64,000 nucleotides of DNA from NCBI GenBank assembly GCA_951812925.1, contig OX638368.1, positions 2,480,001 to 2,544,000 on the forward strand, written 5' to 3'. Origin of the DNA: Calliopum simillimum (lineage: Eukaryota; Arthropoda; Insecta; Diptera; Lauxaniidae). The notes below the pieces were generated by a model that was given only the letters and a program-made list of their open reading frames with translations, was not told where the DNA came from and made no database searches. How positions within the stretch are numbered: the first letter of the stretch is position 1; each line of letters opens with the position of its first letter. Below, piece after piece: positions 9,518 through 62,510 of the stretch. The translations under genes were made by a program, and so were the position numbers.

Positions 9518-9586
9518 ATTGGTGTCAGAAGTGGGATTGTGTAAAAAGAATTTGCAATCAATAAAAAAAAAAAAAATAATAATAAA

Positions 9587-10879
9587 ATGGTTAAGTTTGA
9601 AGATCTAATCATTGGCCAACTTAAAAGCGAGTTGGAAAAGCGGAATTTACAAACGGCTGGCAGAAAGGTGGAACTGCAGCAGCGATTGCGGATTGCTTTT
9701 GAAGAAGATGGTGTGAATATTGATGAGTTTGACTTTGCAGAAGAGACATCGAAAGTAGAGGAAGCTTCTGGACCAGCGGCAAGTGGTGAAGTTGTGAATA
9801 TGTCAAAGTTCGAGCAAATGTTAATGGCGATGACGCAGACAATAAACAAAAATATTCAGGCGGTTCGGGAAGAAGCAATTCAAAATGCACTGCAGATTGA
9901 TCAGAGGTTAAGCCAGAACGCGCTGCAGATGAATAAAAATATCCAAGCGGTTCGAGAAGAAATTGATCAGAGCTTAAGTCAGAACGCGCTGCAGACGAAT
10001 AAAAATATCCAAGCAGTTCGGGAAGAAATTGACAAGAGGTTAAGTCAGAACGCGGCGCAGATGCTCACATTGAATCAAAATATGGAGGCTGTTCGTGCGG
10101 ATGTTGAAAAAATAGTAAATGGCCTCGAAGTAAAAGTGACTGAGTTGCGAGATGACGTTGAATCCTTCAAGGAAAAAGTTGAAAATAATCTTGAAAATGT
10201 TAATAAAAGGATTCAACAGTTGGAAATAAGCAAACCAGCAACTCAAGTGATAAGAGAAAACAGCGCAGTGAGGCTTAAGGCACCCACATACGATGGAACA
10301 ACGGCATTCAGTGTTTTCAGGCTCCAATTCGAAACAACTTCCACTCATAACCTCTGGGATAACGATAGCGCAGCAGCGTCGCTTATCGTCGCATTAAAAG
10401 GCGCAGCTGCAGAAGTATTGCAAACGGTTCCAGTGGCGGAGCAGAAAAGTTACAAGGCTGTGATGGATGCCTTGTAGCGAAAATATGGCAGTGACCACAT
10501 GAAACAGATTCACAGACTGGAGTTGAAAAGTCGTATCCAGAAATCTGGTGAGTCCTTGCAGGAGTATGCTGCGGATATTGAACGGTTGGCACACCTTTCC
10601 TACCCTGACGAGTTAAGTGTCGTGGCTGAAAAATTCAAAATAGAGGCGTTTATTGACGGCATACGTGACTCTGAGACAAAACGCGAAACGATGAGGAGCC
10701 CGAAGGCAACATTTAATGAAACAGTAATGGTTGCCCTCACTCAGGAGATGATTGCATTCACATGCCGCCCAACATTGAAAACTCGTCGGATGGAGGCTGA
10801 AAAGAAAAATTCATCGTTCGCCAGTAGTAGCTTCAGTGGAAAATGCTATGACTGTGGTAAGCAGGCACATGGCACGTGA
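9587..10879 (+). pseudogene. gag: Gag of gypsy copy 1 (SAP domain, coiled coil, zinc knuckle), broken
   Basis: This is the nucleocapsid/capsid precursor of the element. Residues 1-40 (MVKFEDLIIGQLKSELEKRN) form a SAP-like fold motif. Residues about 85-150 hold three tandem units of QNALQxNKNIQAVREEIDQ, a predicted coiled coil. The capsid core follows (LKAPTYDGTTAFSVFRLQFE). A TAG at 10475-10477 replaces the CAG of copy 2, splitting the frame. The frame resumes (MKQIHRLELKSRIQKSGES) and ends just after CYDCGKQAHGT, where a one-base deletion destroys the CCHC knuckle CYNCGKQRHMARDC seen in copy 2. Both lesions make it a pseudogene. Confidence 0.85.
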
Positions 10880-11708: not shown

Positions 11709-12289
11709 ATATAATTATAATATTATATAAAAGACGTGTGTCTTGTTTGTCTGCTCAATATCAAGTAGTTTATTTTATTTTTATATTCAATATTTGATTG
11801 ATAAATTTATGAATACTACGATACTACAATAATTAATTTTTCAATGTTTACCAGTATTGGTTATACAAAAAACAATAAGGGTATTCATGATCAGGAGTAA
11901 CGTCCTGAGTAACAGGGTAACGAACCGAGTGTACTTTTACCCTGTTACTCAGCTCGTTACGTTTTTTGTCAGTCATTCGTGCGAATACGGCAAAGAGATG
12001 AATATTGAAAAAGTTATTGTAGAAACAAGGGATTTTATCTAGGGGGGGAAACAAACTCTAATTTTGTATAACTTCTGTTTTCTTTTTAGAAATTTCAATG
12101 TAAGAGCTAATAAGAACCAAGTTCTTTATATTGGTAGGATATTTGTGCACTAAAATATTTAATAAATGTTCAAAATAAGTTATGAAGGTAGATAAATTTC
12201 TATTTTTTTGACGTTTCCACTATCCGGAACTTCTTGCGGTCTTATCTTTCCACTATGTTTGGTGTCACACAAAGGGCACTGGCCGGCCT
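11709..12289. other. Intergenic interval with a small palindrome
   Basis: GAGTAACAGGGTAA (about 11908) and TTACCCTGTTACTC (about 11937) form an inverted repeat inside a larger imperfect one bounded by GTATTCATGA (11882) and CGTGCGAATAC. The first 29 codons upstream of the RTE break (12290-12200, minus) encode CPLCDTKHSGKIRPQEVP, which I do not recognise. No gene is called. Confidence 0.4.
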
Positions 12290-13593
12290 TTTGTAATTCC
12301 AAGACAAGGTCTTCAACTTTGCTTTGCATATCTGAATGTTTGGACGATAAGAGGCAGATGTCGTCAGCGTTATCGAGATCTTCTAGATGTTCGGTAAAGT
12401 TCCATTGGATACCTCTTTTGGCCTTATTAAGAGCTTTACCTAGGATATCGTCAAGAACGATGAGGAAGAGAGATGGTGATAGTAAACACCCCTGCCGTAC
12501 GCCTGAATTAATTGTGAATGTCAGTGACAATAACCCGTTGTGTAACACACTGCACTTAAAGCTTTCATATTGAGCACGTGCTAAGCTTATGGCCTTTGCG
12601 GCAATACCTCTTCGTTGCAGTGAAGCCCAGATGTTTTCTCGCGAGACACTGTCAAAGGCAGTGCTATAGTCTACAAAGACAAGTTGAAGCACACCACTCG
12701 CATGATTGTTCGAAAATTATTCTGAGCGTGTTGATTTGATTCACGCGTTATCGGTTTCGCCGGAATTCTGCTTGCTGCTTTCGAATGGCCAAATCAAGTT
12801 TTTTGCATAACCTGTTCAGAAGCACTGTCGTCAATACTTTTGATGGTACTGAGAGCAGGGTTATGTTTCTATAGTTTCGGCACAGTTTGACTAACATGCC
12901 ATGTAGCCAATCTTCTGGCAAACGCTCTTCGCTCCAGATTTTGGTGAGCAGAGGATGGAGAATTTTAGCTGATGTTATGGAGCATGCGTTTAGCACCTCA
13001 GCTGTTATTTGATCTATACCGGCGGCCTTGTTGTTTCCATGCTTTGGATACTTTCACTATTTCATCGATTGCAGGCTGCGGTGGTTGCATTCGACTACTA
13101 CTGCGAGTCACTGCGGCAGTTGTAGTTGGTGATTCTGGTTGCGGGGATGTGGTAGACATGGGATTTAGTATATCACAAAATTACTCTTTCCATCTCTTTT
13201 GTTGGTCGTCCGCGGATGTTAAGAGATTTCGATTTTTATCTGTGATAGGGCAGCTCTGTTGGTGTTTTCTGCCAGATAATCTGCGGGTGATATCGTAAAG
13301 CTGCCTGAGATTTTGAGCATTTGCAGCGCTTTCGGTTTTGCTCGCGAGGTCGTTATACATTCTTCTTTTGTCTTGTCTGCACGATCGCCTGACTTCTTTA
13401 TTGAGAGAGTCAAAGACTTTTTCGGCGTCGTTCTTCTGCGCTCTAATTTTAGCGTCGTCTCTCAGTATTTTCGCGCTTCTTTTTTGTTCAACAAGACCCC
13501 ACGTTGCCCACTCATCCAGTGTTTCTTGCTCGAGGGTCGAAACCTAAGTATTTTTTCACTGGAGTTTAAAAACGCCGCCTTGGCCCTCCATGA
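12290..13593 (-). pseudogene. RTE-like non-LTR element: linker and reverse transcriptase part
   Basis: The minus strand begins at the break with IETSWRAKAAFLNSSEKIL, the linker that follows the endonuclease in this family. It continues through ITDKNRNLLTS and QNLERR-type text to TKIWSEERLPEDWLHGMLVK, then the polymerase (VFVDYSTAFDSVSREN; VRQGCLLSPSLFLIVLDDIL). The catalytic YADD is mutated to NADD (DLDNADDICLLSS). There are several frameshifts and the sequence stops after LVLELQKAG, so the C-terminal domain is lost. It is about 90 percent similar by eye to the + strand copy at 28245-29644. It appears to be the continuation of the endonuclease at 27253-28129, interrupted by the CR1-like insertion. 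Confidence 0.8.
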
Positions 13594-18609: not shown

Positions 18610-18612
18610 AAT

Positions 18613-19415
18613 AGGCCTTTTTACATTAACAATCTAGCTGTCAATATGCCAATGATGCCAAGTTCACTTTCTTTCCATCAATCTGAGAATGTATGCAGAT
18701 TGATGAGAAACTGTTAATGTAAACACTCATCAATCTGTATTGACAATCTGATTGCCGAAAAACAAAATTTTTTGACTTTCTGCTGTATTGATGACTTTAT
18801 TGATGGGTAGGTTGACTGTGTAAACGCAATGAAAATTTTTCAGTACACTTTTAGTCAGTTAAGAAAAGATTTCAACAGGTACACATCGTGCGGAAATGAA
18901 AATGGCTTGCATATATGATTTGTTTTTAATCAAAAACGGATAGTTTAATGATTTTGGTTTTCGCTGAAGCTTAATGGGAGCTTTAAGAGAATCTTTTAAT
19001 TTTTGATTGGGACAAAATCAATTTACTGAAACCTGATTGTTATTATTTTTATCAAAGGCTCTTAGTTTTAATTTAAAAAAAAAAAGATTTCGATTAAAAA
19101 ATTTTAATAAACGGCCAAAACCCATATATTTGGTGATAAAGTGGGTTCGGAAATGACAAATTGTTGCTGTGGACCCATTTAAATAAATTTATGGTGTAAA
19201 TTTTGTTATTTCCACTATTTTTTATTAATTTATTTCTGTTATTTCCATCAGCATATCAATTTCTATCATAAAAATTTTATCCGCTGTTGCTTTGTTTCCT
19301 CTTTGGCGTACAAAGCAACACTAAATATTGACAGTTTATTGAACATGTAAACACAAACTCGATATGACATATTGATGGCCAGTTTGATGGCTACACTGAT
19401 AATGTAAAAGGGGCT
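18613..19415. mobile_element. 803-bp MITE AGGCCTTTTTACATTA, copy 1
   Basis: The termini AGGCCTTTTTACATTA and TAATGTAAAAGGGGCT are imperfect inverted repeats. AAT flanks both sides (18610-18612 and 19416-19418). Removing the unit plus one AAT restores the LINE frame exactly, which confirms a 3-bp duplication. The copy at 33765-34564 is almost identical. No open frame was found. Confidence 0.85.
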
Positions 19416-19418
19416 AAT

Positions 19419-21252
19419 GTCTTAGGATATTAAGGTCATAGTTTATATCAGCTACAACGTCAAGCACAGAATCACTCGAATATGTGTACGCCATGTCATC
19501 GGCAAATGCAACTAACTTATTGTACCACAGAAGTTTTGCGAAAAAATAGAGTTGATATACACAAGAAAAAGAATGGGACCTAGTACTGAGCCTTGCGGAA
19601 CACCTATGCCAATATTTTTGTAGCCACTGAAAGTATTTAATATTCTTACTCTCTGGACTCTATCCGACAGATATGTGGCAAACCATTTATGAACTGAGCC
19701 TTTCACCCCACATTTATATAGTTTATCTAAAAGGATTTTGTGGTCTACTGTATCAAAAGCCTTCGTGATATCAATGAAAAGAGCTCCAGTAATCTTTTTA
19801 TTATTTATACCATTGTAAACAGCTGAGCAAAACTTTAATAAAGCTTTTTCTGTATATAGCCCTTCTCTAAATCCAAATTGGCAGTCACTTAATAATTTAT
19901 TTTTATTTAAAAAACTCAATAGCTTTTTTTTCATAGTTTTTTCATAAATTTTGGAAAAGACAGGCAGAAGTGAGATAGGTCTATAGTTTTTTGTCATTTT
20001 TATCTCCTTTTTTATATAATGGTATTACCTCAGCTTTTTTAAGGTTCATTGGAAAGACTCCGGCTTCAATGCTTTTGTTTATAAGATGACACAGGACATC
20101 GGATATGTTAAAAATGATTTTTTTAACAAAAATATTAGAAAAATTATCTGCAGTCTTAGCATTAGAATTTTTAAGTTCAGTAGCAATTTTGTACAGTTCA
20201 AAAGACGTATAGGTTCGTAGAAAAAGCTTGGGCCGTGAAAATTTTCATTAATTAAGCAATTTTCGATTTCCGACGGAAGCCCAATATCTGAAACTATTGT
20301 TTCCCCTGCGCATGCAAAGAAATTATTAAAAGCATCTGCTTTTGTTTCTGGATCAGAAATTATCCTATCATTAACACGAACGAAATTTTTTAATTTTTCT
20401 TAAGTCTATTTAATAAATTATTTACTATTCTCCATTCCTTCTTGGAATCACCTTTAGTTTTTTTAAATTCATTAATATAATAGCTGTTTTTGAGAATTGA
20501 CGATTCAGAAAAAATTTCCTTGCAAATATTTTTGTATTGAGCTTGTAAACTTAATTTTGATGGATGTTTTTTGAGATTCTTAAAGAGCTTATTTTTTGTA
20601 CGAATTTTACGAAGTAATTCAGACGTCATCCACGGTTTTAACCTTTTTGTTCGGGAACTATTAACCTTAACTATTTTCGTACACTGAGATGTATGATGCA
20701 TTAGAATTTTGACAAACTTGTTATAGGCTTCCGAAGGGCAGGTTCCTCATAAACATTGTCCCAAAATTCATACCTTAGACAATCATTTAATTTTTCAAAA
20801 TTAACAATATTACGCTCAACAGATGATACAATTTCAGAGTCAGTTATTTCTATGTTGCCAAACTTTAGACAAGTCAAACAGTGATCCGAAATTTGAAAAT
20901 CGGCCACGGAACTAGCTAAAGAAATTCCACTAGATTGTTTCAGTCTTACAAAAATGTGATCAAGACAAGTACGAGAAGAAATACGTGTTGGCTGATTTAT
21001 ACAAGATTCCAAACCATAAGATGAGAGCAAAGCCAAATAATTGTCGACAAAATTAGAATCATTCAAAATATTCAAATTTAAATCTCCTAATAAAACAAAG
21101 TTGTCAGACTTACCACCTTGCATGACACTGCCCAGATCATTAAGAAATAAATCATTGGGACAATATTCATTAAATCTGTATATACAAACAAAGCTAAACT
21201 TTTGGCCATGAACTTCACAACTCAGTTTCAAAATATCAGAAGTCACAAAATT
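19419..21252 (-). pseudogene. Endonuclease C-terminus, linker and polymerase core of the LINE
   Basis: On the minus strand the first segment (21252-20701) carries the second half of an APE-type endonuclease: FVLLGDLNLNIL (catalytic D/N) and FQISDHCLTCLKF (the SDH motif). A linker follows (RLKPWMTSELLRKIRTKNKL). The polymerase then shows MTKNYRPISLLPVFSKIYEK, ALFIDITKAFDTVDHKIL (catalytic D) and GVPQGSVLGPILFLVYIN. The FADD box lies past a one-base frameshift at about 19530 (LVAFADDMAYTYSSD). There are other frameshifts near 20700 and 20000-20390. It acts in cis with ORF1 during target-primed reverse transcription; this copy is dead. Confidence 0.85.
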
Positions 21253-21749: not shown

Positions 21750-21789
21750 TGTGTAAAAAGAATTTCCAATCAATAAAAAAAATAATAGA

Positions 21790-23265
21790 ATGGTTAAGTT
21801 TGAAGATCTAATCATTGGCCAACTTAAAAGCGAGTTGGAAAAGCGGAATTTACAAACGGCTGGCAGAAAGGTGGAACTGCAACAGCGATTGCGGAATGCT
21901 TTTGAAGAAGATGGTGTGGATATTGATGAGTTTGACTTTGCACATAGTTCAACAGAAGATACATCGAAAGTGGAGGAAGCTTCTGGACCGGCGGTAAGTG
22001 GTGAAGTTATGGATATGTCAAAGTTCGAGCAAATGTTAATGGCGATGACGCAGACAATAAATCAGAACGCGCTGCAGATGAACAAAAATATCCAGGCGGG
22101 TATCCAGGCGGTTCGGGAAGAAACAAGTCAAAATGCACTGCAGATTGATCAGAGGTTAAGCCAGAACGCTCTGCAGACAAATAAAAATATCCAGGCGGTT
22201 CGGGAAGAAATTGATCAGAGCTTAAGTCTGAACGCGACGCAGATGCACACATTGAATCAAAATATGGAGGCTGTTCGTACGGATGTTGAAAAAATAGTAA
22301 ATGGCCTCGAAGCAAAAGTGACTGAGTTGCGAGATGACGTTGAATCCTTCAAGGAAAAAGTTGAAAATAATCTTGAAAAAGTTAATAAAATGATTCAAGA
22401 GTTACAAATAAGCGAACCAACAACTCAAGTTATTAGAGAAACCAGCGGAGTGAGGCTTAAGGCACCAACATACGATGGAACAACGCCATTCAGTGTTTTC
22501 AAGCTCCAATTCGAAACAACATCCACTCATAACCTTTGGGATAACGATAGCGCAGCAGCAGCGCTTATCGTCGCTTTAAAAGGCGCAGCTGCAGAAGTAT
22601 TGCAAACGGTTCCAGTGGCGGAGCAGAAAAATTACAAGGCGGTGATGGATGCATTACAGCGAAAATATGGCAGTGACCACATGAAACAGATTCACAGACT
22701 AGAGTTGAAAAGTCGTATCCAAAAATCTGGTGAGTCCTTGCAGGAGTATGCTGCGGATATTGAACGATTGGCACACCTTTCCTATCCTGACGAGTTAAGT
22801 GTCGTGGCTGAAAAATTCAAAATAGAGGCGTTTATTGACGGCATACGGGACTCTGAGACAAAACGCGAGACAATGAGGAGCCCGAAGGCAACATTAATTG
22901 AAACAGTAACGGTTGCCCTCACTCAAGAGACGATTGCATTGACATGCCGCCCAACATTGAAAACTCGTCGGATGGAGGTGGAGGCTGAAAATAAAAAATC
23001 ATCGTTTGCCAGCGGAAGCTTCAGCGGAAAGTGCTATAATTGCGGTAAGCAGAGACACATGGCACGAGACTGCCGATCACGTCGCAAACGAGCTGCATCA
23101 CGTTCACCAAGAAGAAATATTGAAAATAGGGTGAACGATGGTGAAAATGGTAACGATCGCAGGCTTGAGTATGACCGAGAACGCGAGCAACGTCAAAAAG
23201 AAAGAGAACGAGAACGTGATCGCATACGTCAGAGGGAGGTTCTTTCTTATAAAAAAAATACGTGA
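21790..23265 (+). CDS. gag: Gag polyprotein of gypsy copy 2
   Basis: 491 codons, intact. Residues 1-42 form a SAP-like motif (IIGQLKSELEKRNLQTAGRK) that in other proteins binds AT-rich DNA or chromatin. Residues about 95-160 are a predicted coiled coil built from repeated QNALQxNKNIQAVREEIDQ units; the number and order of units differ from copy 1. The capsid region follows (DGTTPFSVFKLQFETTSTHN). The zinc knuckle CYNCGKQRHMARDC (CCHC) sits near residue 417. An Arg/Glu-rich tail ends at SYKKNT. The integrase frame begins just before this stop in another frame, so a frameshift probably joins them. The start is the ATG after the A-rich leader at 21775-21790. Confidence 0.85.
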   Translation: MVKFEDLIIGQLKSELEKRNLQTAGRKVELQQRLRNAFEEDGVDIDEFDFAHSSTEDTSKVEEASGPAVSGEVMDMSKFEQMLMAMTQTINQNALQMNKNIQAGIQAVREETSQNALQIDQRLSQNALQTNKNIQAVREEIDQSLSLNATQMHTLNQNMEAVRTDVEKIVNGLEAKVTELRDDVESFKEKVENNLEKVNKMIQELQISEPTTQVIRETSGVRLKAPTYDGTTPFSVFKLQFETTSTHNLWDNDSAAAALIVALKGAAAEVLQTVPVAEQKNYKAVMDALQRKYGSDHMKQIHRLELKSRIQKSGESLQEYAADIERLAHLSYPDELSVVAEKFKIEAFIDGIRDSETKRETMRSPKATLIETVTVALTQETIALTCRPTLKTRRMEVEAENKKSSFASGSFSGKCYNCGKQRHMARDCRSRRKRAASRSPRRNIENRVNDGENGNDRRLEYDREREQRQKERERERDRIRQREVLSYKKNT

Positions 23266-24802
23266 GGAAAGAGAACGAAATTGCTTAAGAGAAAAAGAAA
23301 GCGAGCTTCGCGAAGAAAAAAGACGCCGACATGAAATTCGTGAACGTCAACGACAAAAAGAACAGCGTCTAGCTGAAGAACGTAAAAAACTGGCTCTGGA
23401 AAGAGAGCGACGAGAAAGAGAGAAAGCTGCAACAATTGATGTGCGCCATTTGAACATTATGCCTGAAGAAAAGTGGACAAATGAGGAGATACAACGGGAC
23501 CAGCGCAGTGATACAGATTTGGCAACTATAATTAAGTATAAGGAGCTGGGTAGGAAACCAGCGTGGCAAGAAATCTCAAGTGAAAGCCAAATCTGTAAAG
23601 CATACTGGGCGCAATGGCAAAGTTTGCATGATGGTTGCCTATATCGAATCTGGGAAAGCGAGGATGGCAAAATTCGCTCAAAACTGCTGGTTATTCCAAA
23701 GGCAAAATTTAAGGAGATAATCGAGGATTATCACAATGGATCGAGTGGTGGACATCTGGGTATAACAAAAACCACAGAGAAAATAAGGAAGCGGTTTTAC
23801 TGGGTAGGATGCCAAGAAACAGTTGCTGACTGGATCCGCCGTTGTGACCAACGCGCAATTGCTAAAGGACCAAGGCGACGAGCTCGCGGGAAAATGCATC
23901 AGTATAACGTTGGAGCTCCCTTTGAGAGGATAGCCATGGATATAGCTGAACCTTTTCCAATCAGCAATGCAGGAAATAAATACATCCTTGTGGTAATTGA
24001 TTACTTCAGTAAGTGGCCAGAAGTATATCCCATTCCCAATCAAGAAGCAAAAACAGTGGCAGACATTTTCATCAAAAATTGGATTTGTCGATATGGAGCT
24101 CCACTTGAGTTGCATTCCGACCAAGGACGAAATTTTGAGTCGGCACTTTTTAAAGAGGTTTGTGGCTTGCTTGGAATACAGAAGATACGTACCACAGCAT
24201 TGCATCCTCAGTCCGATGGCATGGTCGAAAGGTTCAACCGTACTCTAGAGGAGCATCTAAAAAAGGTTGTCGACAAAGGACAAAAAGATTGGGATGAGCG
24301 TCTACCAATGTTTCTAATGGCTTATCGTTCGTCAATACATGATACCACTACAGTCACGCCATCAAAAGCCATTTTTGGTACGGACTTAAGGCTTCCAGCG
24401 GATTTGAAGTACGGAGTAAGCGTTGTCCCAGAAACAACCCATGCTGACGATTACATGTCGCGAAAAAGAGAAGAACTGGCTGATATACACGAGCTTATCA
24501 GGAGACGTACTCAATTGGCTAGCGACAAGATGAAAGCTCGATATGATCTGCGAGCAAATACTGAAGGGTTCAAAGAAGGTCAATTAGTGCTGCTACACAA
24601 CCCACAACGAAAACGAGGCTTGTCCCCTAAATTACAGACCCACTGGGAGGGACCTTACCGGATCGTCACAAGGATAAACGATGTTGTGTATCGAATCCAA
24701 AAATACCCCGGTAACAAAGGTAAATTAAAAGTGGGACACATTGAAAGGCTAACGCCATATGGAGGCGACAGTGAATCTCTTGTTCGGGACGAACAAGTTT
24801 AA
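23266..24802 (+). CDS. Integrase-only Pol of gypsy copy 2
   Basis: The frame is open from 23138, but conserved protein begins about 23270. An Arg/Glu-rich coiled segment (REKESELREEKRRRHEIRER) is followed by MPEEKWTNEEIQRDQRSD, the region normally after RNase H. Integrase follows: a zinc domain with YHNGSSGGHLG and WIRRCDQR (the last Cys of the HHCC set is Arg here), then the catalytic core with MDIAEPFPIS (D), LELHSDQGRNFES (D) and GMVERFNRTLEEH (E). A C-terminal GPYRIVTRINDVVYRIQ domain completes it. Protease, RT and RNase H are missing. The element could only transpose with enzymes supplied in trans. Confidence 0.85.
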
Positions 24803-27252: not shown

Positions 27253-28180
27253 TGTTCCATCACAATCGAACGGAACTGTTTTAAATTCTTATACGAAAGA
27301 TCTGCGTATCTCGTCGTTCTTAAGCTTAAGCACGTCGATTTTTTTTTTTATACAGATTGTTCGCTGGGTCGTTTATTAGCGGCAAGTGTTTGTCGAATGA
27401 CCGCGACGAGAAGATGGTGGTCGGAGCCTATGTCAGCGGCCCTCTTTACTCGTACGTTCAGAAGACTCCTTCTCCATTTTCTGCTAATGTAGAAGTGGTC
27501 GATGTGGTTGTCAGTGATGTTGTCTGGAGACACCCAAGTAGCTTTATTGCATTTTTTGTGTGGGAATAGCGTATCTCCAACGACTAGACCGGCTGCATTG
27601 CAGGCGTCAATGAGAAGCTATCCATTGTCGTTTCTTGCACCCAAACCTGTCTTCCAATCACGGTTAAGGTTTTCTGAGCCTACTTTAGCATTCAAATCGC
27701 CCATAACCATTATGATGTCGTTCTTGTGAGCACTGTTTATTGCTGCAGCGAGCTGGCTGTAGAATTCATACCGGAGTATAGAAATTTTTCGCCGTCAGGA
27801 AGTACATATTCGCCGGCACCGTTCCATCTACACCCGCTTAATCCCAATATCTCAAGGTTGAATTTGTGCAGTTCTCTTATGGCTTGGTGTATTTTGCTTG
27901 GTTCATCAAGAGTTCGGACATTCCAAGAGCCGATGCGTGTTCGAGTTTTCATCGAAAGGATTTTAAAATTTTGATGAACCATATTGATTCCAGTTATACG
28001 AGAATCATTCCTAACTTTGCATGTTTCTTGGACCTCCAAATCCGATGTGCATGCTACCGAGGTAGGTGGATTAACCACGCTCTGGTGGGTACCACTTGGA
28101 GAGTTATTTTCCATCGTTTTTCGATCCATAATTCATTAGGATAATCTTCTTAGCAACGCCCCATGCAGTAAGTTATAAGC
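27253..28180 (-). pseudogene. RTE-like element: endonuclease part
   Basis: The minus strand reads MDRKTMENNSPSGTHQSVV (28129), then TRIGSWNVRTLDEPSKIHQ, EILGLSGCRWNGAGEYVL and, after frameshifts, FNAKVGSENLNRDWKTGLG-like text and DHFYISRKWRRSLLNVRVK with SDHHLLVAVI. These are the motifs of an APE-type endonuclease as in craniofacial-development-protein-2-like RTE elements. Past SDHHLL the frame shifts in an A-run (27338-27347) and continues IDVLKLKNDEIRRSF, the start of the linker. It ends near DGT, about where 13593 resumes with IETSW. The 5' leader (to about 28180) is non-coding. Confidence 0.8.
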
Positions 28181-28244
28181 TTGAAGCTGGATCCGGCAAG
28201 CGCTGCAACTGTAGTGGCCAAATTCACTTTCAATTTCAGACACC

Positions 28245-29644
28245 CAATCCATCCACTGTTCACCAAAATCTGGAGTGAAGAGCGTTTGCCAGAAGATTGG
28301 CTACATGGCATGTTAGTCAAATTGCCGAAAAAAGGTGACCTAAGTGAGTGCCGAAACTATAGAGGAATCACCTTGCTCTCAGTGCCATCAAAAGTACTGA
28401 CGAAAGTGCTTCTGAGCAGGGTAAGCGAAAAACTTGATTCGGCCATTCGAAAGCAGCAAGCAGGATTCCGGCGAAACAGATCATGCGTGGATCAAATCAA
28501 CACCCTCAGAATAATTGTCGAACAATCATGCGAGTGGCGTGCTGCACTTCAACTTGTCTTCGTTGACTATAGCACTGCCTTCGACAGTGTTTCCCGAGAA
28601 AACATCTGGGCGTCACTGCAACGAAGAGGTATTGCCGCAAAGGCCATAAACTTAGTACGTGCACAATATGAAGGCTTTAAATGCAGTGTGCTACACAACG
28701 GGTTGTTGTCACCGACATTCACCACTAATTCAGGCGTACGGCAGGGGTGTTTACTGTCACCATCTCACTTCCTTATCGTTCTTGACGATATTCTAGATAA
28801 AGCTCTTAATAAGGCCAAAAGGGGTATCCAATGGAACTTTACTGAACATAAAGAAGACCTCGACTACGCCGACGACATCTGCCTCTTATCATCCAAACAT
28901 TCAGATATGCAAAACAAAATTGAAGACCTTGTCTTGGAATCACAAAAGGCCGGCCTGAAAATCAACGTATCCAAGACAAAAAGCATGAAGCTAAACGCAA
29001 GCAATGACATCACGTTTAAAGCTGGCAGTGATGACATCGGAAACGTCGATAGCTTCACGTATTTAGGCAGCATTATCTCCATGGATGGTGGAGCAAAAGA
29101 GGATATCAACTCAAGAATAGCAAAAGCAAAAGGCGCGTTTGCTCAACTGAACAAAATATGGTCTTCATCCGTTATATCCACCAAAACGAGAGTACGCATT
29201 TTTGATTCGAATGTGAAATCGGTTTTGTTATATGGGTGCGAAACATGGCTTGTTACTGAACAACTAACGAACAAGCTGCAAGTATTCGTCAACAAATGCT
29301 TAAGGCGTATACTAAAGGTTTGGTGGCCTCGCACTATATCAAATGCCGAGCTACATCAAAAATGCAAACAGAAGGCAATAGCAAACGAAATCAAGCTGCG
29401 CAAATGGGGATGGATTGGTCACACTCTCCGGAAACCACACAGCGTAGTTTGTCGCCAGGCCCTTGAGTGGAACCCACAAGGCAGTAGAGGACGTGGTAGA
29501 CCCAAAACCAACTGGAAAAGGTCGTTGGAACAGGAAATTCAAGAATCGGGAAAATCGTGGCAAGAGATCAAAGTCATCGCAAAGGATCGTGACAAATGGA
29601 GAGATTTCATATTGTACATACATACAATCTGGAACAGATGCTAA
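28245..29644 (+). pseudogene. RTE-like reverse transcriptase, + strand copy (5'-truncated)
   Basis: The open frame runs 28181-29644, but recognisable protein starts at HPLFTKIWSEERLPEDWLHG. Polymerase motifs are complete: LPKKGDLSECRNYRGITLLS, KQQAGFRRNRSCVDQINTLR, LVFVDYSTAFDSVSREN (catalytic D), NSGVRQGCLLSPSHFLIVLD and DLDYADDICLLSS. The thumb (SFTYLGSIISMDGGAKEDIN) and a C-terminal domain (LRKWGWIGHTLRKP, GRGRPKTNWKRSLEQEI) follow. The reverse transcriptase domain is free of stops and may be catalytically intact, but endonuclease and start are missing in this orientation. 5' truncation is the usual result of target-primed reverse transcription. Confidence 0.85.
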
Positions 29645-29880: not shown

Positions 29881-30136
29881 TAAACGCATTAAAAAATTAA
29901 GCTTGATAACGAATTAATACTTTTAAAAGCGATTTAATTGCAAAAAAATGTTTTCAATGAATTCTAACTAATTTTACTAGGAATATTTTTATTTGACAAA
30001 TGACAAATTTTCTCCCAAGGTTATCTGAACGATTTAATCACCAATAATCAATTTTCTCGCTGACATATGTGAGGTGGACTTTTGGGCTTCGTTTTTGCCG
30101 AAAATTTTATCTATTTTTCAAAAAGTTGCAAAAGTA
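29881..30136. other. AT-rich interval, nothing recognised
   Basis: No open frame, repeat or RNA signal was found. Confidence 0.4.
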
Positions 30137-30478
30137 GTGATGCCAAACAAATTCGAATTCATCAAATTAAAAATCACAAAATTTGAACCATGGTACAATT
30201 ATAGAGGTAGTGCCAAATTGTCAAAACGAACAAAGCGGAGACAAAATTGGTAGCAAGTTCTGTCAAAAAGAGCAAAACGGAGAACGAAATCAACCAATCA
30301 AATCACCTAGAGACAAACGTAAAAATCAGAAAACTGTAAAATTGTTGTTGTTTTGCTAGTTAATTTTGACAGTACTTGCTACCAAAAAAGAAGATCAAAA
30401 AACGTGTCAGTTACTGACGTTACCTAGTTAAAATTGCAAAAATTAATTTGATGAGTTCGAATTTGTTTGGCATCACCA
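30137..30478. mobile_element. Fold-back element with GATGCCAAACAAATTCGAAT arms
   Basis: GATGCCAAACAAATTCGAAT (from about 30139) and the complement ending TTTGTTTGGCATC (to about 30475) form arms of about 32 bp around 280 bp. The same arm sequence occurs at 31108 and 33721, flanking the ribozyme array, so this is a local repeat family. Confidence 0.6.
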
Positions 30479-31129
30479 ATTTTGCCGCCAAAAAAAAAAA
30501 TTGTATGGATTTGATGAGTTTTTGATAGTGAGAACGCTTCTTCAAATAATTTGTCAAATACTTTGAAGAAAATTAAGAATTTTTGATTTTTCGCTGATTT
30601 GACGAGTGATTTGATGAATTATTTGAAAATGTGTACGCAAATACATTTTTCCGCATGCATACTTTCATTTCAAAAAAAGATTTCAACGAGTGCACATCGC
30701 TCGGATGATGAAAGTTAAGAGGAATATGAATTTTTTATACTTTTAGGGTTGTTTTCATTATTTGAAATAAGGTTGTGGTTGAAAGAAAGCTTAAATAATT
30801 TGATTCAATTATTAAATAACTTCTTAGCCAATTTGTATACACATTTGTAATTTTAGATGCAGCTACTGAAGAATTTTATTTACAAAAGTACTTTTTTATA
30901 ATTAATAAGTTACTTTTAGTTGTCTTTTTAATGGACGGAATAATTTGTTTTTGCAAATAAAATTTAATTTATGGTACCTATATCCACTACAATTAAATAA
31001 TTGGTTTCCTTGTTTTTCAACGACGCTTCAATTTTCATAGCCAGAATTCATCCGCTATTGCGATGTTACCTCATCGGCGTACAGAGCAAAACTGAAATTT
31101 GAAAAGTGATGCCAATCAAATTCGAATTC
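30479..31129. repeat. Diverged relative of the AGGCC MITE
   Basis: GATTTCAACGAGTGCACATCG near 30684 and the ATCCGCTATTGCGATGTTACC / GGCGTACAGAGCAAAACT block near 31050 align with GATTTCAACAGGTACACATCG and ATCCGCTGTTGC / GGCGTACAAAGCAACAC of the 803-bp MITE. It ends at a second GATGCCAATCAAATTCGAAT. There is no coding frame. Confidence 0.55.
31117..31129. repeat. Left 13-bp target duplication of the ribozyme array
   Basis: CAAATTCGAATTC, repeated exactly at 33721-33733. Joining the flanks gives a sequence matching the related repeat at 30139-30175. Confidence 0.75.
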
Positions 31130-31410
31130 TTAGCTACCAACAATGAAAATACATTGATGGTTGGAGCTTACTGATACACATACGAATGCGCTTGCTACTT
31201 CGTTTTGTCTCGGCAAAAAAACCTTGCAAACGAAGCGCTATGCAAAAATAGTATAATATCGATGACTCACAACGGCAGGGCAATGCATATAAAGGGAAAA
31301 AACAAAGAAATTGGAATTTTTGCATGTGCTGTGTTTTTCTTGTAGCTGTGATTCTCGTTTAATCTATGCTAAAAGTTAAATAAAGTATGCTTGCAGAATT
31401 CTATAAGACG

Positions 31411-31501
31411 TCGGCAAAGCGTCTGATGAGGAATTGACTTATTATAGTCAATTTTGACCTGTGGTGGGTCCCGAAACTAGTAACGCAAACCAGCCTTCCG
31501 A
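31411..31501 (+). ncRNA. Candidate type I hammerhead ribozyme, unit 1
   Basis: Core CTGATGA (31423-31429) and GAAA (31473-31476) are in the right order. Stem I: GCGT (31419-31422) pairs with ACGC (31483-31486); beyond an internal loop TCGG (31411-31414) pairs with CCGA (31498-31501). Stem III is the palindrome ACTAGT (31476-31481), followed by A, giving a GUA cleavage site between 31482 and 31483. Stem II opens with GG and closes with CC and contains two small hairpins (ATTGACT/AGTCAAT and GACC/GGTC), which is longer than usual and the weakest part. The short palindromic stem III suggests activity as a dimer of neighbouring units. Activity is inferred. Confidence 0.55.
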
Positions 31502-31795
31502 TACATTTTTTTGCTTTTTTTATTTATGTGTATTTTTGCCTTGTTTTTTGTGTTTTTATTGTTGTTTTACTCAAAAACACTGAACAGTAAGCTCCAACCA
31601 TCAATGTATTTTCATTGTTGGTAGCTAAGAATGTTAATCATCATCTGTTCCAAAAAACAAAAAATTTGAAAATCTCAGAGAGCCAACTGATACACATACG
31701 AATGCGCTTGCTACTTCGTTTTGTCTCGGCAAAAAACCTTGCAAACGAAGCGCTATGCAAAAATAGTATAATATCGATGACTCACAACGGCAGGG

Positions 31796-31808
31796 CAATG
31801 CATATAAA
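31796..31808 (+). promoter_or_regulatory. TATA-like box in the 515-bp unit
   Basis: GCATATAAAGGG follows a locally GC-rich CAACGGCAGGGCAAT in every unit, about 130 bp before the ribozyme. It could start transcription of the array; this is a sequence resemblance only. Confidence 0.35.
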
Positions 31809-31925
31809 GGGAAAAAACAAAGAAATTGGAATTTTTGCATGTGCTGTGTTTTTCTTGTAGCTGTGATTCTCGTTTAATCTATGCTAAAAGTTAAATAAAG
31901 TATGCTTGCAGAATTCTATAAGACG

Positions 31926-32016
31926 TCGGCAAAGCGTCTGATGAGGAATTGACTTATTATAGTCAATTTTGACCTGTGGTGGGTCCCGAAACTAGTAACG
32001 CAAACCAGCCTTCCGA
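31926..32016 (+). ncRNA. Candidate hammerhead ribozyme, unit 2
   Basis: Same motif as unit 1, shifted by 515 bp; CTGATGA at 31938. Confidence 0.55.
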
Positions 32017-32440
32017 TACATTTTTTTGCTTTTTTTATTTATGTGTATTTTTGCCTTGTTTTTTGTGTTTTTATTGTTGTTTTACTCAAAAACACTGAAC
32101 AGTAAGCTCCAACCATCAATGTATTTTCATTGTTGGTAGCTAAGAATGTTAATCATCATCTGTTCCAAAAAACAAAAAATTAGAAAATCTCAGAGAGCCA
32201 ACTGATACACATACGAATGCGCTTGCTACTTCGTTTTGTCTCGGCAAAAAACCTTGCAAACGAAGCGCTATGCAAAAATAGTATAATATCGATGACTCAC
32301 AACGGCAGGGCAATGCATATAAAGGGAAAAAACAAAGAAATTGGAATTTTTGCATGTGCTGTGTTTTTCTTGTAGCTGTGATTCTCGTTTAATCTATGCT
32401 AAAAGTTAAATAAAGTATGCTTGCAGAATTCTATAAGACG

Positions 32441-32531
32441 TCGGCAAAGCGTCTGATGAGGAATTGACTTATTATAGTCAATTTTGACCTGTGGTGGGTC
32501 CCGAAACTAGTAACGCAAACCAGCCTTCCGA
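32441..32531 (+). ncRNA. Candidate hammerhead ribozyme, unit 3
   Basis: CTGATGA at 32453; core and stems identical to unit 1. Confidence 0.55.
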
Positions 32532-32955
32532 TACATTTTTTTGCTTTTTTTATTTATGTGTATTTTTGCCTTGTTTTTTGTGTTTTTATTGTTGTTTTAC
32601 TCAAAAACACTGAACAGTAAGCTCCAACCATCAATGTATTTTCATTGTTGGTAGCTAAGAATGTTAATCATCATCTGTTCCAAAAAACAAAAAATTAGAA
32701 AATCTCAGAGAGCCAACTGATACACATACGAATGCGCTTGCTACTTCGTTTTGTCTCGGCAAAAAACCTTGCAAACGAAGCGCTATGCAAAAATAGTATA
32801 ATATCGATGACTCACAACGGCAGGGCAATGCATATAAAGGGAAAAAACAAAGAAATTGGAATTTTTGCATGTGCTGTGTTTTTCTTGTAGCTGTGATTCT
32901 CGTTTAATCTATGCTAAAAGTTAAATAAAGTATGTTTGCAGAATTCTATAAGACG

Positions 32956-33046
32956 TCGGCAAAGCGTCTGATGAGGAATTGACTTATTATAGTCAATTTT
33001 GACCTGTGGTGGGTCCCGAAACTAGTAACGCAAACCAGCCTTCCGA
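32956..33046 (+). ncRNA. Candidate hammerhead ribozyme, unit 4
   Basis: CTGATGA at 32968; core and stems identical to unit 1. Confidence 0.55.
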
Positions 33047-33470
33047 TACATTTTTTTGCTTTTTTTATTTATGTGTATTTTTGCCTTGTTTTTTGTGTTT
33101 TTATTGTTGTTTTACTCAAAAACACTGAACAGTAAGCTCCAACCATCAATGTATTTTCATTGTTGGTAGCTAAGAATGTTAATCATCATCTGTTCCAAAA
33201 AACAAAAAATTAGAAAATCTCAGAGAGCTAACTGATACACATACGAATGCGCTTGCTACTTCGTTTTGTCTCGGCAAAAAACCTTGCAAACGAAGCGCTA
33301 TGCAAAAATAGTATAATATCGATGACTCACAACGGCAGGGCAATGCATATAAAGGGAAAAAACAAAGAAATTGGAATTTTTGCATGTGCTGTGTTTTTCT
33401 TGTAGCTGTGATTCTCGTTTAATCTATGCTAAAAGTTAAATAAAGTATGCTTGCAGAATTCTATAAGACG

Positions 33471-33561
33471 TCGGCAAAGCGTCTGATGAGGAATTGACTT
33501 ATTATAGTCAATTTTGACCTGTGGTGGGTCCCGAAACTAGTAACGCAAACCAGCCTTCCGA
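33471..33561 (+). ncRNA. Candidate hammerhead ribozyme, unit 5
   Basis: CTGATGA at 33483. CCGATAAATT replaces CCGATACATT just outside stem I, so the predicted fold is unchanged. Confidence 0.55.
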
Positions 33562-33720
33562 TAAATTTTTTTGCTTTTTTTATTTATGTGTATTTTTGCC
33601 TTGTTTTTTGTGTTTTTATTGTTGTTTTACTCAAAAACACTGAACAGTAAGCTCCAACCATCAATGTATTTTCATTGTTGGTAGCTAAGAATGTTAATCA
33701 TCATCTGTTCCAAAAAACAA

Positions 33721-33733
33721 CAAATTCGAATTC
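33721..33733. repeat. Right 13-bp target duplication of the ribozyme array
   Basis: Exact copy of 31117-31129; after it the interrupted repeat continues ATCAAATTAAAATCGAC. Confidence 0.75.
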
Positions 33734-33764
33734 ATCAAATTAAAATCGACAAAATTGTGCTAAT

Positions 33765-34564
33765 AGGCCTTTTTACATTAACAATCTAGCTATCAATATG
33801 CCAATGATGCCAAGTTCACTTTTTTTCATCAATCTGAGAATGTATGCAGATTGATGAGAAACTGTTAATGTAAACACTCATCAATCTGTATTGACAATCT
33901 GATTGCCGAAAAACAAAATTTTTTGACTTTCTGCTGTATTGATGACTTTATTGATGGGTAGGTTGACTGTGTAAACGCAATGAAAATTTTTCAGTACACT
34001 TTTAGTCAGTTAAGAAAAGATTTCAACAGGTACATATCGTGCGGAAATGAAAATGGCTTGCATATATGATTTGTTTTTAATCAAAAACGGATAGTTCAGT
34101 GATTTTGGTTTTCGCTGAAGCTTAATGAGATTTTTAAGAGAACATTTTAATTTTTTGACTGGGACAAAATCAATTTACTGAAACCTGATTGTTATTATTT
34201 TTATTAAAGACTCTTATTTTTAATTTAAAAAAAAGATTTCAATAAAAAAATTTTAATAAATGGCCAAAGCCCATTTTTTTGGTGATAAAGTGGGTTTGGA
34301 AATGACAAATTGTTGCTGTGGACCCATTTCAATAAATTTATGATGTATATTTTTATGTTTCCACTATTTTTTATTAATTTATTTCTGTTATTTCCATCAG
34401 CATATCAATTTCTATCATTAAAATTTTATCCGCTGTTGCTTTGTTCCCTCTTTGGCGTACAAAGCAACACTAAATATTGACAGTTTATTGAACATGTAAA
34501 CACAAACTCGATATGACATATTGATGGCCAGTTTGATGGCTACACTGATAATGTAAAAGGGGCT
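33765..34564. mobile_element. 800-bp MITE AGGCCTTTTTACATTA, copy 2
   Basis: Same termini as copy 1 at 18613 and flanked by AAT (33762-33764 and 34565-34567). The two copies agree almost base for base over most of their length, with small indels near 34150-34340. Non-coding. Confidence 0.85.
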
Positions 34565-60798: not shown

Positions 60799-62510
60799 TG
60801 TACATTAGACCGGTGCGTTTTGGACGAAAGTTTAAAATTTGTCGCGCAACCGGCAGAATTGTAAAGTTTAACTATCGACATGAAGATTGCCGCCACCCTA
60901 GCTCTGAGAGATGACGGGAAGGGGTGTCGATATATTTTTGTAGGTTGAAAAACGTGGTTTAAAAATGCATGCTCATAGGTCCGAAGTGAATCAATTCTCA
61001 GCTTCGTAGTAGGTCGAAAACTGAAATCTAAGACATGGATTCTTATGTATTTTTTCAAGTAGAATCGAATGGCATCATTAGTTTTCTGATAAGACGTCCA
61101 CTTTTGGCGTTAAGTCAACTTTTCAGCTCAAAAAAGTCGAAATTTTTCCAAATCCCCTGTTTGAGCACTCCACAATTGAACAGAAAAAATCTTAGAAAAA
61201 TTTGAAATGTATATTTTGTTAGGATTTTTTCTGACGAATCCAGTGATACCATTTTTTTTGCACTACGACATTATTTTCAATCATGAAAAACGAATTTTTG
61301 ATTTTTATTATCAAAAAATAACACGAAATCGGGCGTAAATATTTAGTCAACGACGGTTCCCAACGTCCGGACGGTTTTTTCTTTTCAGTGCCCCCTAGTA
61401 AAATTTTTTTAGAATATTTTTGGAAATTTTTTTAACCCATTATAAACAAGTTTTTGAAAAAGGGGTCAAAAAGACCCTTAAAAACGAGATATAATGGGTT
61501 AAGATGTTCGCATAACTTAATGTAGAATCAAGCATGGAACAATATTTTAGAACGTCTTAACCCATTATAAACAAATTTTTGGAAAAGAGGTCGAAAAGAC
61601 CCTTAAAAACGCGTTATAGTGGGTTAAGATGTTCTAAAATATTGTTCCATGCTTGATTCTACATTAAGTTATGTGAACATCTTAACACATTATAACGCGT
61701 TTTTAAGGGTCTTTTCGACCCCTTTTCCAAAAATTTGTTTATAATGGGTTACGACGTTCTAAAATATTGCTCCATGCTTGATTCTACATTAAGTTATGTG
61801 AACATCTTAGCCCATTATATCTCGTTTTTAAGGGTCTTTTTTACCCCTTTTTCAAAAACTTGTTTATAATGGGTTAAAAAAATTTCCAAAAATATTCTAA
61901 AAAAATTTTACTAGGGGGCACTGAAAAGAAAAAACCGTCCGGACGTTGGGAAACGTCGTTGACTAAATATTTACGCCCGATTTCGTGATATTTTTTGATA
62001 ATAAAAATCCAAAATTCGTTTTTCATGATTGAAAATAATGTCATAGCGCAAAAAAAATGGTATCACTGGATTCGTCAGGAAAAATCCTAACAAAATATAC
62101 ATTTCAAAATTTTCTAAGATTTTTTCTGTTCAATTGTGGAGTGCTCAAACAGGGGATTTGGAAAAATTTCGACTTTTTTGAGCTGAAAAGTTGACTTAAC
62201 GCCAAAAATGGACGTCTTATCAGAAAACTAATGATGCCATTCGATTCTACTTGAAAAAATACATAAGAATCCATGTCTTAGATTTCAGTTTTCGACCTAC
62301 TACGAAGCTGAGAATTGATTCACTTCGGACCTATGAGCATGCATTTTTAAACCACGTTTTTCAACCTTCAAAAATATATCGACACCCCTTCCCGTCATCT
62401 CTCAGAGCTAGGGTGGCGGCAATCTTCATGTCGATAGTTAAACTTTACAATTCTGCCGGTTGCGCGACAAATTTTAAACTTTCATCCAAAACGCACCGGT
62501 CTAATGTACA
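60799..62510. repeat. 1.7-kb nearly perfect hairpin
   Basis: TGTACATTAGACCGGTGCG (60799) and CGCACCGGTCTAATGTACA (to 62510) end two arms of about 850 bp that are complementary along their entire length with few differences by eye. The arms include TTTTCTTTTCAGTGCCCCC and GGACGGTTTTTTC. Near the centre (about 61430-61880) there are four further units of AACCCATTATAAACAA...AAGACCCTTAAAAACG...TAATGGGTT, so the middle can fold in several ways. A 94-codon minus frame (60774-61058) and an 87-codon plus frame (62251-62514) are the same sequence read from the two arms and are probably not genes. It could be a fold-back transposon or a hairpin-RNA source. Confidence 0.8.

What the first reader, a model, noticed from the sequence alone, without database searches (positions are those of the whole stretch)
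31130..33720. Mobile tandem array of 515-bp units, each with a candidate hammerhead ribozyme
Five near-identical units are flanked by an exact 13-bp direct repeat (CAAATTCGAATTC), so the multimer was inserted in one step and not built by local duplication. It starts with a 41-bp inverted piece of the unit itself. Each unit has CTGATGA and GAAA cores, a two-part stem I (GCGT/ACGC and TCGG/CCGA) and a GTA cleavage site, plus a TATA-like box. Known relatives of this layout are Penelope-like elements with hammerheads in their terminal repeats, animal and plant retrozymes, and the ~500-bp hammerhead satellite of Dolichopoda crickets. No protein is encoded, so it would depend on another element's reverse transcriptase. 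A ribozyme-processed, probably circular RNA copied into a multimeric insertion would explain all of it.
Basis: partly seen in the sequence, partly recalled or inferred. Interest (0 to 1): 0.92.

Follow-up and report, generated by a model that had tools for sequence, protein, structure and literature searches.

The report
Jumping tandem repeat with self-cutting RNA
A 515-base repeat in this insect (probably fly) genome is a protein-less jumping element found at dozens of separate sites; each repeat carries a predicted self-cutting RNA, and its insertions look as if each was copied from one small, probably circular, RNA by the enzyme of a Penelope-like retrotransposon, which would tie two poorly understood kinds of mobile element together.

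Summary
The array is real and is one complete insertion: five 515-bp units, a 44-bp inverted arm and a 13-bp target duplication, with a similar empty site in the same window. The genome holds many more copies (772 ribozyme-pattern matches, 897 terminal hairpins). I examined 38 sites. Of 27 with both flanks, 22 have target duplications, mostly 13 bp. Outer ends fall at two points about 27-44 nt apart, both away from the ribozyme cut; 18 of 21 sites with an inverted arm have one end of each kind. That is the "tail" signature of Penelope-like elements (PLEs), whose reverse transcription starts internally at two adjacent sites. Within arrays, variants are fixed in all units (39 cases), single (55) or partial (1); permuted labels give 0.7 fixed. 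So each array was copied from one monomer, which fits a ribozyme-made circle. The hammerhead is supported by shuffles (1 of 20,000) and by the fold of an older family. No Rfam match, no RNA data, and no autonomous PLE sharing the unit was found. Best filed as a PLE-mobilised, retrozyme-like element.

The parts
31117..31129 (+). left target site duplication CAAATTCGAATTC
   Evidence: exact 13-bp repeat; paralogous empty site at 30136-30183
31130..31173 (-). inverted arm (unit positions about 483-440), outer end of type B
   Evidence: 100% complementary to each unit; similar arms at other sites
31170..33720 (+). direct arm, 4.95 units of 515 bp, outer end of type A
33721..33733 (+). right target site duplication CAAATTCGAATTC
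31288..31295 (+). TATA-like box TATAAAGG (repeated every 515 bp); promoter role not tested
   Evidence: sequence only
31411..31501 (+). predicted type I hammerhead ribozyme, unit 1; cut predicted after 31482
   Evidence: relatives
31926..32016 (+). predicted hammerhead, unit 2; cut after 31997
32441..32531 (+). predicted hammerhead, unit 3; cut after 32512
32956..33046 (+). predicted hammerhead, unit 4; cut after 33027
33471..33561 (+). predicted hammerhead, unit 5; cut after 33542
31583..31625 (+). hairpin at the two insertion end points (unit 1; also from 32098, 32613, 33128, 33643); likely recognition site of the reverse transcriptase
   Evidence: 897 pattern matches in the genome, reversed control 0; ends map at or just after it
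31622..31633 (+). end point B (unit positions 477-488, mostly 482-488), likely reverse transcription start
   Evidence: ends of the sites
31658..31667 (+). end point A (unit position 513 to 7 of the next unit, A-rich), likely second reverse transcription start
   Evidence: ends of the sites
30136..30183 (+). paralogous empty site: 44 of 48 bases match the joined flanks, ungapped, one copy of the 13-bp target

Best explanation
The array is one insertion of a protein-less mobile element that was likely copied, as a multimer, from a single 515-nt RNA, probably a circle made by its predicted hammerhead ribozyme, by the reverse transcriptase of a Penelope-like element acting in trans. Shown: one insertion with a 13-bp target duplication; many other sites; clonal arrays; outer ends at two points about 27-44 nt apart; head-to-head arms that carry the same variants. 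Inferred steps: units are transcribed from a promoter in the unit; the hammerheads cut the transcript into monomers, probably as dimers, since helix III is the self-complementary ACUAGU; a host ligase closes the monomer; the PLE enzyme cuts both strands of an AT-rich target about 13 bp apart; each DNA end primes at its own internal start site (A or B) next to the hairpin; the enzyme runs round the circle a variable number of times; the two cDNA arms are joined where they stop, giving the inverted junction.
For: Target duplications at 22 of 27 sites with both flanks in hand, 12 of the 22 exactly 13 bp, all 18 sites with an inverted arm included (my tally of the rows). Empty sites. Outer ends: of 21 sites with an inverted arm and both outer ends seen, 18 have one A and one B end, 3 have A plus an end inside the unit, none AA or BB (rows). 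The published PLE mechanism predicts this: internal initiation at two adjacent sites that bound the 30-40 bp 'tail', cleavage and extension of both strands, AT-rich targets (PMC11167929); a 31-bp tail on one of two inverted pLTRs with a short target duplication (PMC3846280). Clonality: 39 fixed, 1 partial, 55 single variant-in-array cases over 38 sites and 149 pieces; permuted labels give mean 0.7 fixed, at most 6 in 1000 runs; 14 fixed cases are private to one site; 11 fixed cases span both arms. Exact ribozyme junction (15 nt each side) in 127 of 130 pieces. Hammerhead; the consensus of 31 older copies folds by itself into the hammerhead; one stem I pair changed from T-A to G-C. PLE genes with long open frames are present.
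Against: No autonomous PLE that shares the unit was found: four PLE loci have no blastn match to it; six GIY-YIG hits on C1 below 72.3 Mb that I took as PLEs lie 147 kb or more from any listed hairpin; one further PLE frame has a unit about 2.8 kb upstream, which may be chance and could not be read. No RNA data exist here, so transcription, cutting and circles are untested. Rfam finds no hammerhead. Folding energy is ordinary (z -0.60 for the unit motif, +0.53 for the old consensus). The unit's own minimum-energy fold pairs part of the core; the fold held to the hammerhead is 2 kcal/mol weaker (-20.5 against -22.5). Within the old copies covariation is nearly absent (1 double change in each stem). 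In the PLE tested in vitro the hammerhead was not needed for insertion and the two strands showed no difference in start site (PMC11167929). Five of 9 direct-only sites show no target duplication. Inner ends of arms do not fall clearly at the ribozyme cut.
Confidence: 0.78

Rival explanations
1. Same element and enzyme, but the template is a linear multimeric transcript of an existing array; the hammerhead is idle during insertion.
For: The Anolis PLE inserts unprocessed RNA in vitro and hammerhead mutants do not matter (PMC11167929). Seven of the 55 single variants recur at another site.
Against: A linear multimer would hand on mixed units; only 1 partial case against 39 fixed, and 14 fixed cases are private, so each would need an unseen source array fixed for the same variant.
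Confidence: 0.15
2. A monomer or dimer inserted and then expanded in place by unequal exchange or gene conversion, like an ordinary satellite.
For: Hammerhead satellites are usually described as long arrays, and exchange would keep the flanks and target duplication.
Against: Expansion would leave variants in 2 to n-1 units; 1 of 95 cases does. Both arms of head-to-head copies can be multimeric (L034, L035, L055, L060, L062).
Confidence: 0.06
3. Mobilised by a LINE-type enzyme with twin priming, not by a PLE.
For: LINEs make target duplications and 5' inversions (recalled); several non-PLE reverse transcriptase frames lie in the window.
Against: Twin priming leaves one 3' end outside (recalled); here both outer ends are RNA 3' sides at two neighbouring points, the PLE tail pattern.
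Confidence: 0.06
4. The hammerhead-like motif is chance and the array is a non-ribozyme PLE derivative.
For: No Rfam match; ordinary folding energy; unit fold prefers another pairing by 2 kcal/mol.
Against: 1 of 20,000 shuffles, hammerhead fold of the old consensus, a paired change in stem I.
Confidence: 0.04

Closest known systems
Metazoan non-LTR retrozymes (Cervera and de la Pena 2020, PMC7229834; abstract, Results parts 1-2 of 3 and Discussion read)
   Same: Protein-less tandem repeats with a type I hammerhead, low G+C, target duplications longer than 4 bp, coexisting with PLEs in one genome; proposed circular RNA intermediate and PLE enzyme.
   Different: Unit is 515 bp (150-450 bp there); stem II carries an extra 23-24 nt; the end points, head-to-head arms and tail described here are not in the sections read; expression of circles not tested here.
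Penelope-like elements and their pseudo-LTRs (PMC11167929, parts 1-2 of 4 read; PMC3846280, passages read)
   Same: Two end points 30-40 bp apart, head-to-head inverted copies, short target duplications, TATA-like box, hammerhead upstream of the end points, tandem arrangement.
   Different: No open reading frame with reverse transcriptase and GIY-YIG; no PLE with the same unit sequence found.
pDo500 satellite of Dolichopoda crickets (PMC2808323, passages read)
   Same: Insect repeat with a hammerhead-like motif, transcribed to some extent (as that paper states).
   Different: Described as a satellite; no insertion ends or target duplications in the passages read.
Plant LTR retrozymes (PMC4918200, search listing only; features as given in PMC7229834)
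   Same: Protein-less retroelement with hammerheads and proposed circular RNA.
   Different: Type III hammerheads in LTRs, primer binding site, 4-bp target duplications; here type I and about 13 bp.

Membership tests
Hammerhead ribozyme, type I | CUGANGA...GAAA...UH core with open helix I and closed helix II | tested here: met
   All five window units; 1 of 20,000 shuffles. Helix II of the unit can form in two ways
Hammerhead ribozyme, type I | match to a curated covariance model | tested here: not met
   No Rfam hammerhead match at E <= 10; the motifs of PLE loci L077 and L078 are missed as well
Hammerhead ribozyme, type I | conserved pairing in relatives | tested here: met
   Old consensus folds as hammerhead; in 31 old copies 134 of 151 stem I cells and 131 of 146 stem II cells pair, against at most 90 and 107 when slid; only one double change per stem
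Hammerhead ribozyme, type I | self-cleavage | not testable with these tools
   needs transcripts
Metazoan non-LTR retrozyme | tandem repeats with a type I hammerhead and no protein, dispersed, with target duplications | tested here: met
Metazoan non-LTR retrozyme | unit length 150-450 bp as published | tested here: not met
   515 bp
Metazoan non-LTR retrozyme | abundant linear and circular RNA | not testable with these tools
   no RNA data on hand
Penelope-like element (autonomous) | ORF with reverse transcriptase and GIY-YIG endonuclease | tested here: not met
   No ORF of 120 aa or more overlaps 31130-33720
Penelope-type insertion (PLE enzyme used in trans) | two end points 30-40 bp apart (tail), head-to-head inverted copies, short target duplications | tested here: met
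   18 of 21 sites A plus B; distance 27-44 nt at the 12 sites where both ends map; 14 of 14 mixed sites of the C1 list head-to-head; duplications mostly 13 bp
Penelope-type insertion (PLE enzyme used in trans) | an autonomous PLE in the genome sharing the start-site region | tested here: inconclusive
   PLEs present; none of four examined shares the unit; one 797-aa PLE frame has a unit about 2.8 kb upstream, about 0.07 such pairs expected by chance by my own arithmetic, and it could not be read
Plant LTR retrozyme | type III hammerhead in LTRs | tested here: not met
   helix I is the open one: type I

The most novel reading that the evidence does not exclude
Internal initiation, the oddity of Penelope-type reverse transcriptases, exists because their natural template is a ribozyme-made RNA circle: on one circle the two cut strands of the target each prime at their own start site, A for one strand and B for the other, and both copies run round it until they meet, so that an insertion is a two-armed clonal multimer.
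Probability: 0.4. Interest if true: 0.85.

Novelty: new variant of a known kind. Interest (0 to 1): 0.68.

Why it matters
That PLEs move retrozymes, and that circular RNA is the template, had been proposed, but in the sections I read (PMC7229834) the PLE link rests on coexistence, shared type I hammerheads and tandem copies. This genome offers a missing link in sequence: a ribozyme element without protein whose insertions carry the PLE tail signature and whose arrays are each clonal for one monomer, inverted arm included. It also suggests a use for the hammerheads of PLEs, whose role a review calls still a mystery (PMC7761336, passages), and makes the two-start-site mechanism testable with natural insertions. 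I saw no paper that reports these points in nine searches of the held library, which lacks most subscription journals; most hits were seen as listings only.

Tried and rejected
Rfam scans of the window, of the array region and of 15 old copies plus L071 and four PLE loci, and RF00163 over the genome (its 14 control genomes did not ring either, so that search shows little): no hammerhead match. I used a descriptor, shuffles and relatives instead.

First lead to an autonomous partner: the best GIY-YIG hit (L071) lay beside unit-like sequence, but the gene looks like a host SLX1-type nuclease (my reading by eye; no family search run) with an old element copy next to it. Four real PLE loci do not share the unit. 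PLE coordinates were compared with the listed hairpins: one neighbour pair, the unit at C1:11923247-11923453 and the PLE match at C1:11926241-11928193, same strand. No ribozyme motif or hairpin is listed within 20 kb beyond that PLE, so I treat it as probably chance.

Did the reverse transcriptase stop at the ribozyme cut? Inner ends of arms pile up 3-15 nt downstream of it (unit 341-353), but the best 11-nt window is not unusual against random placement (P 0.24). Three of the 59 ends in that call abut runs of N and should be dropped; the count in 338-348 is then 5, not 6. I do not rely on it.

Covariation among old copies alone is too scarce to prove the structure. I first took helix II of the unit (GACC/GGUC around UGUGGUG) as a set of compensating changes, but the insertion makes the alignment ambiguous and the minimum-energy fold pairs that stretch otherwise, so I do not count it. 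A first ribozyme pattern had a wrong gap length and found 4 variant copies only; corrected. Dropped: pieces under 60 bp, indels, the outer bases of each piece, unit 484-489.

Full report
1. What is there. Window 31117-33733 is a 13-bp direct repeat, a 44-bp inverted piece of the unit, 4.95 direct units of 515 bp and the second 13-bp repeat. The units are 99.4-100% identical to the reference unit I used, itself cut from the array. No ORF of 120 aa or more overlaps the array. The joined flanks match 44 of 48 bases, ungapped and with one copy of the 13-mer, at 30136-30183 of the same window, and 32 of 34 bases at 30443-30476 on the other strand: paralogous empty sites.

2. The genome. The window lies in a 690-Mb assembly of 334 contigs. 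The host is an insect, probably a fly: of 120 listed relatives of a ubiquitin hydrolase frame of the window, the three that bear organism names are from Anopheles (two) and Bradysia. The unit has 187 matches, not all of them listed and a lower bound. The young ribozyme pattern matches 772 times, reversed control 0; the hairpin pattern 897 times, reversed control 0. The 100 hairpins listed, all on C1 up to 72 Mb, form 62 sites, 39 with a single hairpin; 22 of 24 same-strand spacings are 513-518 bp.

3. Insertion anatomy. I fetched and mapped 38 sites (loci L031-L070 and the window). They are the best matches to the window unit, so they are young and not a random sample; of four of them I hold only one or both ends. 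From the rows: of 27 sites with both flanks in hand, 22 have a target duplication (8-16 bp, 12 of them 13 bp), including all 18 with an inverted arm; the five without one are direct-only sites (L032, L042, L043, L056, L059). In three of the 22 the repeat lies beyond a filler or an A-run (L046, L051, L055); the script missed these and one search shows them. For site L049 the joined flanks match 38 other genomic places straight across the target, while the site itself matches as two halves overlapping by 13 bp.

4. Two end points. With unit position 1 at window 31661, the ribozyme cut is at 337/338. With the longest repeat counted as target duplication, outer ends lie at 477-488 (B, mostly 482-488) or at 513 to 7 of the next unit (A, in an A-rich run that can be longer); 27-44 nt apart at the 12 of 17 sites where both ends map exactly. 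Of 21 sites with an inverted arm and both outer ends seen, 18 have one A and one B (L033-L036, L044, L045, L047-L051, L055, L057, L058, L060-L062, window); three have A plus an end inside the unit (L039, the C1:89.02-Mb site L069/L070, the C2:68.49-Mb site L064/L065); none has AA or BB (rows). Of nine direct-only sites with the left end seen, eight end at B and one at A (L056). All 14 mixed-orientation sites of the C1 list are head-to-head, 3' sides outward. This is not the twin-priming pattern of LINEs (recalled). It is what is known of PLEs: a purified PLE starts reverse transcription internally at two adjacent sites that bound the 30-40 bp tail, cuts and extends both strands, and prefers AT-rich DNA (PMC11167929); [quoted passage not shown] Against a strict one-site-per-strand rule, the in vitro work saw no difference in start site between strands.

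5. One monomer per array. I aligned 149 unit pieces (61,755 bases) from the 38 sites and classed each substitution within each array. Fixed in all covering pieces: 39 (25 with three or more pieces, 14 with two). Partial: 1 (L037). Single: 55. A further 2 had only one covering piece. With site labels permuted 1000 times the fixed count averages 0.7 (maximum 6). Fourteen fixed cases are private to one site. Eleven fixed cases are carried by both the inverted and the direct arm, four of them private (L044, L049 twice, L061). So the units and both arms of these insertions came from one monomer sequence. The ribozyme cut site is crossed without a seam: 127 of 130 pieces are exact over 15 nt on each side. 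A monomeric circle copied round and round explains this; a linear multimer or local expansion would leave partial patterns. Three variants that are single in one array are fixed in another (211T, 299T, 359A); by a rough count of mine about 0.7 such coincidences are expected, so this is only suggestive.

6. The hammerhead. In the window the descriptor rings in the five units only; in dinucleotide shuffles of the unit, 1 of 20,000. An older family was found through L071, 68-72% like the unit, and 58 matches to L071 at about 40 places, mostly 78-85% like it; I read the ribozyme region of 30 of these plus L071. Its consensus folds without constraint into helix I (UUCGU/ACGAA), helix II (AUGAU/AUCAU, with U-U at its base) and the open core. 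Seven of 31 copies keep both core strings exactly, as expected of dead copies; core substitution is 26 of 395 cells against 75 of 577 outside the motif. Between old family and unit, one helix I pair went from T-A to G-C and the outermost one was lost. Helix II of the unit gained 23-24 nt and can form in two ways: a short helix GACC/GGUC around the kept sequence UGUGGUG, or, in the predicted lowest-energy fold, a longer helix between the insert and that sequence. The unit's free fold also pairs part of the core; the hammerhead-held fold is 2 kcal/mol weaker. Helix III is A-CUAG-U, self-complementary over six bases; in the old family ACGU; in PLE motifs L077 AUGCAU and L078 AUAU. Amphibian hammerheads with a one-pair helix III and a palindromic loop cut well as dimers, and minimal PLE ones may, so a tandem array supplies partners. 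Energies are ordinary and Rfam does not match.

7. The enzyme. The genome has PLE genes: four loci with both reverse transcriptase and GIY-YIG domains in frames of 554-841 aa and 68 matches to one of them, many with long open frames. None of the four shares the unit by blastn. Of 11 such matches on C1 below 72.3 Mb, one (C1:11926241) lies within 3 kb of a unit; with 62 sites about 0.07 such pairs are expected by chance (my arithmetic). The letters could not be fetched. So the partner is not identified, and the PLE step rests on the insertion signature.

8. Verdict. A protein-less, hammerhead-bearing element that works like a metazoan retrozyme and is inserted the way PLEs are. As a retrozyme it meets the structural features but exceeds the published unit length, and circular RNA is untested. 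It is not itself a PLE (no enzyme). Shown here: insertion, dispersal, two end points, clonality. Supported by sequence: the ribozyme. Inferred: cutting, circle, PLE enzyme in trans.

Noticed in passing
L045 3008-3944: A DNA transposon of about 940 bp with CAGTGCTGTCGT-type inverted ends and an 8-bp duplication (GTTCCAAA), hAT-like by my reading, sits inside an array.
   Followed up: partly
window 33762-34033 and 18610-18882: A stretch 99% identical over 273 bp, rich in CATCAATCTG inverted repeats (miniature transposon-like by eye), begins about 30 bp after the insertion and occurs earlier in the window too.
   Followed up: no
window 21757-24802: Gag- and integrase-like frames of an LTR retrotransposon; a frame at 9545-10879 looks like the same gag by eye.
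   Followed up: no
window 28172-29644, 12180-12716, 19512-20024: Reverse transcriptase frames (RVT_1; the first also DUF6451), LINE-like by my reading.
   Followed up: no
window 61432-61877: Tandem array of a 125-bp unit that contains inverted sequence.
   Followed up: no
L079 1459-6201: A PLE copy with inverted arms (964 bp at 99% identity) and a 1.3-kb transposon-like insertion between inverted ends in its 3' part.
   Followed up: partly
G000 C2:87222731-87230446: Three PLE frames in tandem with a period of 2892 bp.
   Followed up: no
window 31430-31466 (each unit): The extra stretch in helix II (GACTTATTATAG) pairs with CTGTGGTGGGTC largely through G-U; against an exact inverted copy all five differences are C to T (by eye).
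   Followed up: no
G000 C1:69679376-69883666: Six single young ribozyme motifs, all on the minus strand, 13-55 kb apart, with no listed hairpin beside them.
   Followed up: no
L046 left flank: About 24 bp of filler between target duplication and element contains an inverted copy of part of the target, as if target DNA had served as template.
   Followed up: no
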